The translations under genes were made by a program, and so were the position numbers. From contig KN832554.1 in assembly GCA_000827205.1 (NCBI GenBank), positions 1,672,345 through 1,736,344 on the forward strand: a DNA stretch of 64,000 bases, given 5' to 3'. The notes beneath the pieces were generated by a model. That model saw nothing but the letters and a program-made list of their open reading frames with translations. It did no database searches and was not told where the DNA came from. Source of the stretch: Plicaturopsis crispa FD-325 SS-3 (lineage: Eukaryota > Basidiomycota > Agaricomycetes > Amylocorticiales > Amylocorticiaceae). The first letter of the stretch is position 1, and every line of letters starts with the position of its first letter. Shown here piece after piece: positions 35,087 through 40,782 of the stretch.

Positions 35087-37296
35087 ATGTCGACCCAAGC
35101 ACCCGTGGCCCCGCCCCCAGCCGTCGTCCACGATGAGAAGAACGAGCCTCCCTCTGAGGCGCACTGGGAAGACTCTGAGCGCCGCCCGCCCTCGGAATTC
35201 GAGCAGGAGGTCGCATCGCACCACATGAAGCTACGGGGCAAGAGCTTGACTGCCACCCTCGCGTTCGTCGCAGGCACTGGCTTCACACTCTTTGGGTAAG
35301 TTGTGGAAAAAAAACAATGGTCCCATGTCCAGTTCTGACGATCAGCGCCAAGTTATGACCAGGGCGTAATGTCTGCTCTGCTCACCGCTTCTCAATTTGA
35401 GAAGACGTTCCCAGAGACCGTGGTACCCAAAGACGGATCCAAGCCAGAGCATGCGACCCTGCAATCCTTCCTCGTCGCGATCTACGTGAGTGTCCACGTG
35501 CAGTCCCAATGCGGAAGGGCGCCGCTGACATTCAAATCTTCAGGAAATTGGCTGCCTCATCGGCGCGCTCGCGAACTTGTGGGTGGGTGACCGCCTCGGT
35601 CGTAGGCGCACCATTATCCTTGGTGCTGTCCTCATGATCATTGGCGCCATCCTGCAAACGGCCTCTGTCGACTATCCTATGATGATAGTCGCACGAATTG
35701 TCACCGGTCTCGGAAATGGATTGAACGTACGTCGCATAAGGTTCTACTCATTGCGCCCGGGCGTTAACTCCAAATATACAGACGTCTACAGTACCATCGT
35801 ACCATGCCGAGTGTTCCCCGGCCGCAAGTCGAGGAAGCTTGATCATGATGGAGGGTGCCCTTATCACTTTCGGTATCATGGTCTCGTGAGTGCTGTTATC
35901 ATCCTGAGAGCTCAAGGATATTTCCTAACTTATATCCGCAGGTACTGGGTAGACTTCGCCTGCTTCTGGGCGAAAAGCTCTTCAGCCCAATGGCGTGTTC
36001 CCATTGCGCTTCAAATACTGTTTGCGCTTATCCTGATCGTGACTATCCGCTGGGTGGGTCGCATATCGTGTTCCGACGTGTGTTTAAATCTAATCTAGGC
36101 GTTCGTAGCTCCCAGAGTCGCCTCGTTGGCTAGTCAAGCAGGGCCGTACGGCCGAGGCCATGGCAGTCATCTCTGCACTCGAAGACAAACCCGCGTCCGC
36201 TACGGAAGTAAGGCAGACTTTGCATGCTATCGAGGATGCTGTCGCACTGGAAGAGGTTGGGAGGGACAAGATCACCGGCGAGGTCAAGAAAGCATCTTTG
36301 AGCGAGCTCTTCACGCACGGTCGCGGTCAGAACTTCAGGCGGGCGTTCTTGGCTGTCACCGTGCAGTGCTTCCAGCAGATCACCGGTATCAACCTTATCA
36401 CCTAGTGCGTGTCTTCTGCTCTTCACTGCGACTCCGTGTCGGCTAACCGCTCTCCATAGTTATGCCACACTGCTTTTCGAGCGCCTCGGTCTTTCGGACG
36501 TCAAATCGCGTATCCTGGCTGCCTGCAACGGCACTGAATACTTCTTGGCCTCCCTCATCGCGATCGCGCTCATTGAGCGTGTCGGTCGCCGACGCCTCAT
36601 GCTTTTCGGCGCCGTTGGTCAGACTATTACCATGGTCCTCCTTGGCATTCTCGGAAGCCTGAGCGGCAACAGCGCGGCCGATATCGTCAGCGCAGTCCTG
36701 CTTTTCGTCTTCAACTCGTTCTTCGCGATTGGCTGGCTCGGCATGACGTGGCTGTACCCCGCTGAGATCGTCGGACTGCGGATTCGTGCACCCGCAAACG
36801 CGCTCAGTACCGCGTCCAACTGGATATTCAAGTACGCGACCTTTGATCCAATGTTTAGAGTCTTGGTGCTGACTTTTCCTCCTAGCTTCATGGTTGTGAT
36901 GGTCACAGGACCTTCGTTCAACAACATCGGTTGGAAGACTTATATCGGTAAGTCTGCCATGTCTCATCGCGTTGCACCGCCACTGACCATTGCCCATCGA
37001 CAGTCTTCGCTGCACTCAACGCATTCATCGTCCCCATCGTGTACTTCTTCTTCCCCGAAACGGCCGGAAGGAGTCTCGAAGACATGGACGTCATCTTCGC
37101 GTTGGCGCACAACGAGGGCGTCTCCCCCGTGGGCGTCTCTCTGCGAAAAGACATCCCCCTCGCCGGGTCGCCCGAGGCCGACAAAATCCTCGGCATCGAC
37201 ACCGCGATGCGCAACGGCTCGCGCAACACCAGCGACCAGAACGTCGCGCAGCAACAAAGAGATCAGGAGAAGAAGGTGGAGCAGAGCGATGTTTAG
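35087..37296 (+). CDS. MFS sugar transporter (sugar porter family)
   Basis: Plasma-membrane hexose-type symporter with twelve membrane segments. The N-terminal cytosolic part (MSTQAPVAPPPAVV..) is followed by GTGFTLFGYDQGVMSALL (TM1), IGCLIGALANLWVGDRLGRR with the G-R-R loop motif, and IVARIVTGLGNGL. LPESPRWLVKQGR is the sugar porter PESPR motif after TM6, and VTVQCFQQITGINLITYYA holds the QQxTGIN substrate motif of TM7. ALIERVGRRRLMLFGA is the second half's R-x-G-R-R, and FFFPETAGRSLEDMD is the PETxG(R/K) motif after TM12. At least eight introns; for example GG/GTAAG.. joins ..TLFG/YDQG. The substrate cannot be named from sequence alone. The tail is polar (..QRDQEKKVEQSDV). Confidence 0.93.
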
Positions 37297-37804: not shown

Positions 37805-38391
37805 ATGTCGCTGCACCAATCAACCCCCGTGCCGGTGCCCAGCCTTCCCCCCGAACTATGGCTTTCTATCATCGACTTTGCAACATACGTCCCAGAAATT
37901 ATGGAACCCGACATCTACGACTACGCGGATGCCGGGCTGCGCAAACAGCGCCTGCGCCGTCTCCTGAAAACGAGTCTGGTCACGAAACGAAGCATCGTAC
38001 GCGTGTGCAGATTTTGGAACCATATCGGCACGCCCTACCTGTACGAGGCGTTGTACATCCGTCTGGAGAGGATGCTACCGTTACTTTCCGACACACTGAC
38101 GCTATCCGATCGGCTGTCGCTGAACCCAGGCTCTGCGTCTTCTCTTGGTAGCCAGACGAAACGTCTCGACATCGGCTTGCATGATACTTATACCCTTAGC
38201 CCCACCGAACTCGATACTCTGGGGGACATCATACGACGTTTACCGAATCTGACTATTGTCAATGTCTGCATACCAGAGTCAGGGATCCTTGCATTTAAGA
38301 TGCCTGCTGTCATTGTGGACTCCGTGCGGGAGACATGCAGCCGCTCTCTGCGAGTATTCACCTGGTCGACAAGTCTGTATATGCCACCCGA

Positions 38392-38755
38392 GGCGAAGTA
38401 GGACCCCCGAATATTAGGGTAAATGCCGTTATGAAAATCGCAAGAGCTGATTTTTTTTGCCCGGATGATTTGCGAGGGACAGATTCCTTTTTGCCCGGAT
38501 GGCAACTGGCCTTATTGCCTTTTCGGGCGCATTACCCACCCAAAAGGTCACGTGCAAATGCGCAAAATTTTGGTGGCGGCGCCTGCGGCGCCGCCACCTT
38601 CCCCCTGCAAAGATTTTGCCCGGATGCGACATGGCCTCCCTCGCAGAGGGCAAGATTTTTGCCCGGATGGCATATGGCCTTCCTGGCCAAAGTGCAAATT
38701 TTGCCCGGATGATTGAAACGGCATTTAGCCTAATATTCGGGGGTCCTGGCGAAGT
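38392..38755. mobile_element. Non-autonomous TIR DNA transposon (MITE), hAT-like, in the F-box-like gene
   Basis: The element proper is 38400-38747 (348 bp) with about 31-bp TIRs starting AGGACCCCCGAATATTAGG (one mismatch) and an 8-bp TSD GGCGAAGT at 38392-38399 and 38748-38755. No coding capacity. The interior has repeated GCCCGGATG words. The AGGACCC terminus and 8-bp TSD match the element at 8190-8714, so they belong to one group although the interiors differ. Confidence 0.88.
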
Positions 38756-38774
38756 TGCCCTACCGAAAGCTGCT

Positions 38775-40202
38775 CGCTGAGGCTAGTCTCCCGTAGTCAG
38801 ACTAAAATTTCAGAAAAAGGACAGTCGATTTTCCTACATTATAGTCTGATTCAAGTGAGGTACCCGTAATCGGAGTAGAAAAAAAGGTCACGTGAAGTCA
38901 TGCTTTTCGACATGTGGCGCAACATTTACTATGCGCGACTGGGCTCCCCTGCTCTAAATTCCTCATGTACCGTCACTATTCTTCGTTCTGGTTGCTTTAT
39001 TGTGCTCTGCACACTGCTATGTATGTCTCTGACTGCAAAATAATCACCCGAAAAGCTTTTTTACTGGTCACTTCTGCTGCATCTTGTCAGTTTTCGCTGA
39101 AATACAGTCTATATGCGCGCGCACGGCATCTTGGAACATCTGCGAAAAGCCGAACCACCGTCAACGTCATTCAGCATATACTGGATATCAAAACTTGGAG
39201 ATACCGAGGCGTAAACTGAGCAGCAGACGTGTTTTGCTATACGCTACCTNNNNNNNNNNNNNNNNNNNNNNNNNNNNNNNNNNNNNNNNNNNNNNNNNNN
39301 NNNNNNNNNNNNNNNNNNNNNNNNNNNNNNNNNNNNNNNNNNNNNNNNNNNNNNNNNNNNNNNNNNNNNNNNNNNNNNNNNNNNNNNNNNNNNNNNNNNN
39401 NNNNNNNNNNNNNNNNNNNNNNNNNNNNNNNNNNNNNNNNNNNNNNNNNNNNNNNNNNNNNNNNNNNNNNNNNNNNNNNNNNNNNNNNNNNNNNNNNNNN
39501 NNNNNNNNNNNNNNNNNNNNNNNNNNNNNNNNNNNNNNNNNNNNNNNNNNNNNNNNNNNNNNNNNNNNNNNNNNNNNNNNNNNNNNNNNNNNNNNNNNNN
39601 NNNNNNNNNNNNNNNNNNNNNNNNNNNNNNNNNNNNNNNNNNNNNNNNNNNNNNNNNNNNNNNNNNNNNNNNNNNNNNNNNNNNNNNNNNNNNNNNNNNN
39701 NNNNNNNNNNNNNNNNNNNNNNNNNNNNNNNNNNNNNNNNNNNNNNNNNNNNNNNNNNNNNNNNNNNNNNNNNNNNNNNNNNNNNNNNNNNNNNNNNNNN
39801 ACTGGGCTCCCCTGCTCTAAATTCCTCATGTACCGTCACTATTCTTCGTTCTGGTTGCTTTATTGTGCTCTGCACACTGCTATGTATGTCTCTGACTGCA
39901 AAATAATCACCCGAAAAGCTTTTTTACTGGTCACTTCTGCTGCATCTTGTCAGTTTTCGCTGAAATACAGTCTATATGCGCGCGCACGGCATCTTGGAAC
40001 ATCTGCGAAAAGACCGAACCACCGTCAACGTCATTCAGCATATACTGGATATCAAAACTTGGAGATACCGAGGCGTAAACTGAGCAGCAGACGTGTTTTG
40101 CTATACGCTACCTGCCTAATTTGGACGAAACACGTGCCACACGTGACCTTTTTTTTCTACTCCGGTTACGGGTACCTCACTTGATCCAGACTACGCTGAG
40201 GC
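38775..40202. mobile_element. TIR DNA transposon with 9-bp TSD (Mutator-like), containing the assembly gap
   Basis: The element is 38784-40193 with a 9-bp direct repeat CGCTGAGGC at 38775-38783 and 40194-40202. A 9-bp TSD and long TIRs fit Mutator-like elements. The TIR of about 53 bp (TAGTCTG(A/G)TTCAAGTGAG.. to ..GGTCACGTG, few mismatches) is at 38842-38894 and 40140-40193. The left end has 58 extra bases with a small inverted TAGTC motif. No transposase is seen. The interior is interrupted by 551 Ns flanked by duplicated sequence. If that duplication is artificial, the true element is about 546 bp. Confidence 0.78.
39250..39800. other. Assembly gap (551 N) flanked by near-identical 312/313-bp copies
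   Basis: The bases before the gap (38938-39249) and after it (39801-40113) are the same sequence, differing by one inserted A (..GAAAAGCCG.. versus ..GAAAAGACCG..). This pattern is typical of two contig ends that overlap but were not merged. A true tandem duplication inside the element is the alternative. Confidence 0.9.
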
Positions 40203-40782
40203 CCCCAATCTCCTCATGACCGTGGCTTCCTATTTCGCGCTGGGTCGTCGTCCCGACGCACCGCGCCTCACGCACCTTGCTGTACCGCGATATCCCATCA
40301 GCGTACCCCTTGACGCTCGGTCTCTGCCGTCGTTGACTTCTTTTGAGTACACGTACAACACGTACTACTCCGCCACTGTTCTGCGCGCTCACGGCCACAA
40401 ATTGACTGCGGTGGTCCTGCATGTGCACCGGGCAAATGCCCTCGGAGCGGAACTTGGCGCAGTGACGGAAGCATGTCCGCGCCTCGCTCGGCTGATGCTG
40501 GGTCTTCAGTGTTGGGACTATTTCCACCCCGACATTGTCTTACCCTCCACTATCACGCACCTCGGCCTTCGTTCGAACCCATACCGCCGTGCGAAGGCAT
40601 CGGTCTACCTCGCGTTCTTTGAAGCGCTGCGGGGCGTTGCGGTGCCTTCTCTCAAAACCGTGCAGTTTTACGACTCGCGCGACGTTGCACGCTTGAGAGA
40701 AACCTCAGAGCTGTGCGAGGTCATCGCCAGCTTTTCATCGTCGGGATTCCGTCTCCTCGACCACGACGGGAAGGACCTGTGA

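What the first reader, a model, noticed from the sequence alone, without database searches (positions are those of the whole stretch)
37805..40782. F-box-like gene hit by two different DNA transposons, otherwise undamaged
The three host pieces (595, 28 and 580 bases) add up to an exact 401-codon frame when each element and one TSD copy are left out. The two elements have different TIRs and TSD lengths (8 and 9 bp), so the gene took two independent insertions only 28 bp apart without other visible decay. This suggests recent transposition, a strongly relaxed gene, or an insertion hot spot.
Basis: seen in the sequence. Interest (0 to 1): 0.72.

Follow-up and report, generated by a model that had tools for sequence, protein, structure and literature searches.

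The report
Gene split by two jumping-DNA elements
A fungal gene has been cut into pieces by two small mobile DNA elements, which is ordinary; but one of them belongs to a transposon family that often leaves only its short hairpin tip in the genome, which we could not match to anything described.

Summary
Host pieces of 595, 28 and 580 bases (401 codons) flank a 348-bp element with an 8-bp TSD and a second element with a 9-bp TSD. A paralogue matches both halves in order, so this was one gene; the F-box label is weak. Element 1 is a MITE. Element 2 is inflated by an N gap between two near-identical 312-base copies; full copies elsewhere are 545 and 547 bp. Intact frames do not show recent insertion.

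The larger point is element 2's family. A 6,479-bp member carries a DUF6589 gene and a RecQ-like helicase, resembling AcademH (transposase not compared). In 8 of 9 long copies the inverted repeats begin inside a 52-67-bp hairpin 'appendage' present at the left end only. Of 41 appendage ends examined, 22 are solo stubs of 42-65 bp, 19 with an exact 9-bp TSD and 3 with one mismatch; 13 of 22 stop exactly at the inner repeat. Loss of the repeat-to-repeat core is my favoured cause; hairpin-terminated transposition is the bolder rival.

The parts
37805..38399 (+). Host gene, piece 1 (595 bp, codons 1-198 plus 1 base): N half with LPPELWL...CRFW...YLYEAL motif; a stop (TAG) is formed at 38399-38401 where the frame runs into element 1
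38392..38399 (.). TSD1 left copy GGCGAAGT
38400..38747 (+). Element 1: 348-bp MITE, 31-bp TIRs (AGGACCCCCGAATATTAGG...), no long ORF
38748..38755 (.). TSD1 right copy
38756..38783 (+). Host gene, piece 2 (28 bp); its last 9 bases are the left copy of TSD2 (38775-38783)
38784..38843 (+). Element 2, 60-bp left 'appendage' TAGTCTCCCGTAG...CATTATA with hairpin loop GACAGTCG; the same unit occurs alone, between 9-bp TSDs, elsewhere in the genome
38844..38893 (+). Element 2, inner left inverted repeat starting GTCTG (46 matching columns of 51 against the right end)
38784..40193 (+). Element 2 as assembled (1410 bp): non-autonomous member of a DUF6589 + helicase transposon family; true length probably about 546 bp
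39250..39800 (.). Assembly gap (551 N) between two near-identical copies of about 312 bp
40194..40202 (.). TSD2 right copy CGCTGAGGC
40203..40782 (+). Host gene, piece 3 (580 bp, last base of a codon, 192 codons, TGA): C half

Best explanation
The window holds a host gene (single-frame, about 400 codons, F-box/LRR-like by its paralogue) broken by two independent non-autonomous DNA transposons. Element 1 is a 348-bp MITE with 8-bp TSDs. Element 2 is a roughly 546-bp member of a family whose long copy encodes a DUF6589 protein (inferred transposase) and a RecQ-like helicase and which makes 9-bp TSDs; its apparent length is inflated by an assembly gap. The gene is probably dead or reduced to a 198-residue N-terminal product, because the first insertion creates a stop at its border (shown in sequence; expression not tested). 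Element 2 shows the build of its family: inverted repeats starting GTCT, with a 52-67-bp hairpin appendage outside the left repeat but inside the TSD. Most likely mechanism for the solo appendages: the repeat-to-repeat core is lost (excision at the inner left repeat and the right end, or repair that stops at the hairpin) and the appendage stays behind between the TSDs. Odds: broken gene with two elements 0.95; 9-bp-TSD DUF6589/helicase family 0.85; core loss as the origin of the stubs 0.5.
For: Pieces, frames and TSDs. Paralogue C2:1025334-1026488 (385 aa, one open frame) matches piece 1 at its residues 8-131 (E 1e-10) and piece 3 at 279-375 (E 1e-4), in order. Element 1: 21 matching stretches in the genome (two on C14 flank one N gap, so probably 20 insertions), 17 of 21 with an exact 8-bp TSD. 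Element 2 family: complete element C5:1217502-1223980 with TSD GGAAGTCAA at both ends; DUF6589 E 8.7e-61 and 1.2e-65 for two pieces; Helicase_C E 1.1e-8 and DEAD 6e-7, RecQ-type chains in the PDB E 2.3e-11. A second end, C5:235299, is followed by DUF6589 3.5 kb on and a similar helicase frame. Stubs: 19 of 41 ends have an exact 9-bp TSD 42-65 bp away, against 30 of 16,159 random places. 13 of 22 stubs end exactly before GTCTG, and 6 of the 8 clearly shorter ones end in TA, the last two bases of the full element, as a deletion that spares the right tip would give. Stubs share loop variants with long copies (GATAATCG, GACACTCG, GATGATCG), so they arose several times.
Against: Pfam F-box below cut-off. 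The two-ended status of the second autonomous-type element was not shown: no exact right end plus TSD was found. In 13 stubs the join to the TSD is clean, which excision repaired by end joining would not usually give. No copy lacking the appendage but with both inverted repeats and TSD was seen, though the searches were mostly keyed to the appendage. Of the 9 long copies tested, L071 lacks the inner/right match. DUF6589 as transposase rests on its place in the element, not on a fold or an active-site test; its C-terminal piece has no PDB match up to E 10.
Confidence: 0.75

Rival explanations
1. Stubs are transposition products in their own right: helicase-driven unwinding from the left end stops at the appendage hairpin, and the piece so far released is inserted with a normal 9-bp TSD (one-ended or hairpin-terminated transposition).
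For: 13 of 22 stubs have one and the same right edge and a clean join; 19 of 22 have exact TSDs; the element encodes a RecQ-like helicase; stem sequence differs between lineages while pairing and the loop GANNNTCG persist. In Helraiser a hairpin acts as a transposition terminator (PMC4778049, abstract and passages).
Against: 6 of the 8 shorter stubs end in TA, twice where the appendage itself does not carry TA at that point (L095, L072), which suggests the right tip was there. Seven short ends have no recognisable right TSD. The hairpin in the window's own subfamily is weak (5 of 7 stem pairs).
Confidence: 0.3
2. Stubs are an independently mobile family of 42-65-bp elements.
For: Many loci, each with its own exact 9-bp TSD.
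Against: No inverted repeats at the stub ends; stubs group with different long copies by loop variant, so they are not one lineage.
Confidence: 0.1
3. The elements act as introns and the gene still makes a full protein.
For: TSD1 plus the start of element 1 reads GTAGGA, a possible 5' splice site.
Against: By hand, the donor at 38398 paired with the AG at 38753-38754 removes 357 bases, not the 356 needed to keep frame; no transcript data at hand.
Confidence: 0.05
4. The spot is an insertion hot spot.
For: Two elements 28 host bases apart.
Against: Two events only; once the gene is broken a second insertion costs nothing. The 9-bp and 8-bp targets here share no evident motif (seen directly, no test run).
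Confidence: 0.1

Closest known systems
AcademH DNA transposons (Kojima 2020; paper not held, known to me through passages in PMC10045372, PMC10799480 and PMC8290104)
   Same: 9-bp TSD (PMC10045372 passage: AcademH makes 9 or 10 bp TSDs); a DEAD/Helicase_C helicase; low copy number and presence in Basidiomycota (PMC10799480 passage).
   Different: Transposase not compared with an Academ reference; one-sided hairpin appendage outside the inverted repeat, and solo appendages, are in none of the passages I saw.
Mutator-like elements with extra or tandem TIRs (PMC3310237, passages)
   Same: A second inverted-repeat start inside the outer end, and TSDs around the outermost repeat.
   Different: There the outer unit is a copy of the TIR; here the outer unit is an unrelated hairpin on one side only, and it is found alone in 22 of 41 ends.
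Helitron Helraiser (PMC4778049, abstract and passages)
   Same: Helicase plus a terminal hairpin with a role in where transposition stops.
   Different: Helitrons make no TSD and have no inverted repeats (recalled); here there are 9-bp TSDs and 50-bp inverted repeats.
hAT-type MITEs (recalled)
   Same: Element 1: short, TIRs, 8-bp TSD.
   Different: No transposase-bearing relative with the same ends was found; the superfamily is therefore open.

Membership tests
AcademH | 9-10-bp TSD | tested here: met
   Exact 9-bp TSD in 8 long copies within 1450 bp and in the 6,479-bp element
AcademH | DEAD/Helicase_C helicase encoded | tested here: met
   C5 element, Helicase_C and DEAD above cut-off in one piece, DEAD just below in the other
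AcademH | Academ-type DDD/E transposase | not testable with these tools
   No Academ reference sequence held; the element has DUF6589; original paper not held
KDZ transposons | KDZ transposase (PF18758) in the element | tested here: not met
   43 KDZ matches in the genome, none within 30 kb of the 35 exact ends (compared by eye)
hAT (element 1) | 8-bp TSD | tested here: met
   17 of 21 stretches
hAT (element 1) | hAT transposase in a relative with the same ends | tested here: inconclusive
   38 end matches, all at the copies already known; no longer element
F-box proteins | Pfam F-box or F-box-like above cut-off | tested here: not met
   Piece 1: 10.7 bits against 24.3; paralogue 18.2

The most novel reading that the evidence does not exclude
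A eukaryotic DNA transposon family with a DUF6589 transposase and a RecQ-like helicase uses a one-sided terminal hairpin as a stop signal: when unwinding halts there, only the 42-65-bp hairpin tip is inserted, with a normal 9-bp TSD. The tips would be among the smallest TSD-flanked products of a DNA transposon, and a way to seed genomes with short hairpins.
Probability: 0.3. Interest if true: 0.75.

Novelty: new variant of a known kind. Interest (0 to 1): 0.5.

Why it matters
A gene with two insertions is common. The stubs matter more: short repeats of 42-65 bp with perfect TSDs would escape repeat finders, and their fixed right edge at an inner inverted repeat makes the cutting steps of a little-studied helicase-bearing transposon testable. 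It also gives a Pfam family of unknown function (DUF6589) a likely job.

Tried and rejected
Introner-like elements: the 60-bp units are intron-sized and TSD-flanked, but carry no good splice signals in frame (by eye). KDZ as the transposase: no KDZ match near the ends. Recent insertion as the reason for intact frames: not needed. Core-only copies (both inverted repeats, no appendage): looked for only through in one subfamily; the C9 copy (L013) could not be resolved at its ends (one search printed 'not found'). Relatives: none held for this genome. Literature: DUF6589 in 0 papers, PF20231 in 1 unrelated paper, AcademH in 7 listed papers, and broad searches on one-ended transposition, solo TIRs and Academ in fungi, of which the listings and the passages of 7 papers were seen. 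No description of solo hairpin appendages was met there; subscription papers and the AcademH paper were out of reach.

Rows dropped: L065 (two mismatches in the end motif) was fetched but left out of the 41 ends, and the second such site, C15:402607, was not fetched.

Full report
The window is a stretch of contig C1 of an unnamed 33.2-Mb genome; introns, GC content and gene types fit a basidiomycete, but I did not identify the species.

The finding. The host gene starts at 37805 and ends at 40782. Three host pieces of 595, 28 and 580 bases add up to 401 codons, and both long pieces are open. Each insertion has an exact TSD: GGCGAAGT (8 bp) and CGCTGAGGC (9 bp). Searching the genome with the C half finds only itself; the N half finds itself and three weak relatives, the best at C2:1025352 with E 7.5e-6. 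That paralogue is one open frame of 385 residues. It matches the N half at residues 8-131 (E 1e-10) and the C half at 279-375 (E 1e-4). So the pieces belong to one gene. Pfam gives only a sub-threshold F-box-like match, and the paralogue is below the cut-off too.

Age. Element 1 has 21 matching stretches, 17 of them with an exact 8-bp TSD. The window copy differs from the majority at 17 of 347 positions, 8 of them private; the other stretches range from 0.6 to 3.2%, except a partial one of 168 positions at 8.9%. If all 8 private changes arose in place, a neutral gene of this length would still lack a new stop with probability 0.47. Intact frames therefore say little about age or selection.

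Element 2 and the gap. An N run (39250-39800) sits between two near-identical blocks of about 312 bases. Two complete copies elsewhere have one block and are 545 and 547 bp long. A copy of element 1 on C14 shows the same pattern around a gap, which supports an assembly artefact.

The family of element 2. The outer end TAGTCTCCCGTAG occurs 35 times in the genome, with 0 matches for the reversed pattern. Six more ends with mismatches were added, giving 41. Of these, 19 have the same 9 bases again 42-65 bp further on, and 3 more with one mismatch; 8 have them at 545-1410 bp, and one at 6,479 bp (L067). Seven short ends have no recognisable right TSD, and for three long ones (L055, L090, L096) the right end was not found. 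At random places in the same loci an exact repeat at 30-80 bp was seen in 30 of 16,159 trials. No TSD-bounded copy among these lies between 65 and 545 bp.

The long element at C5:1217502-1223980 carries DUF6589 on the + strand and a helicase on the - strand with Helicase_C and DEAD matches and RecQ-type PDB relatives. A second end, C5:235299, has DUF6589 3.5 kb downstream and a helicase-like frame on the other strand, judged by eye; its right end with TSD was not found. DUF6589 has 56 matching stretches in this genome and none in 14 control genomes.

Architecture. In 8 of 9 long copies the right end matches not the outer left end but a site starting GTCTG, 52-67 bases further in: 37-46 matching columns of 51-52, against 4-27 of 66-94 for the outer end; L071 is the exception. 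So the left side bears an extra unit, the appendage. It holds a hairpin with a fairly constant 8-base loop and stems that differ between lineages: ATAGGAA/TTCCTAT, GAGTGAA/TTCACTC and AAAAAAT/ATTTTTT pair fully, others 3 to 6 of 7. Mean pairing is 5.7 of 7 for own arms and 4.1 for swapped arms. There are few independent lineages, so this is suggestive only; 5 of 41 ends lack the loop.

Stubs. The solo units are appendages. Compared with the nearest long copy, 13 of 22 end exactly before GTCTG, one more (L097) is exact or one base short, and 8 are shorter; 6 of these 8 end in TA. Stubs share loop variants with different long copies, so stubs formed repeatedly. Loss of the repeat-to-repeat core explains the TA-ending ones best; hairpin-terminated insertion explains the clean, uniform ones best. 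I give these 0.5 and 0.3.

Known relatives. AcademH is said to make 9- or 10-bp TSDs (passage in PMC10045372) and to be a low-copy helicase-bearing element in Basidiomycota (passage in PMC10799480). Non-autonomous Academ copies were reported in Marasmius oreades (passage in PMC8290104). I could not compare transposases. I found no paper naming DUF6589 in the held library.

Verdict. The given finding is real and ordinary. The solo hairpin stubs and the DUF6589/helicase link raise the interest to moderate.

Noticed in passing
L042 (C14:816280-820605): A copy of element 1 is split by an N gap with overlapping parts (positions 1-236 and 17-348) on the two sides, the same artefact as in the window.
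   Followed up: partly
L067, L098, L099 (C5:1217502-1223980): Complete 6,479-bp element with a DUF6589 gene and a convergent RecQ-like helicase gene between exact 9-bp TSDs.
   Followed up: yes
L090, L100 (C5:235299 onward): Second appendage-bearing end followed by DUF6589 and a helicase-like frame; right end not found.
   Followed up: partly
L094 and L074 (C18 and C9): Stubs whose hairpin lost one arm (42 bp) or gained part of one (65 bp), while the right edge stayed in place.
   Followed up: no
L066 (C4:1683647): Stub with a partly repeated hairpin arm.
   Followed up: no
window 36545-37296: The gene upstream ends in what reads like the C-terminus of a sugar transporter; seen in the ORF list only.
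   Followed up: no
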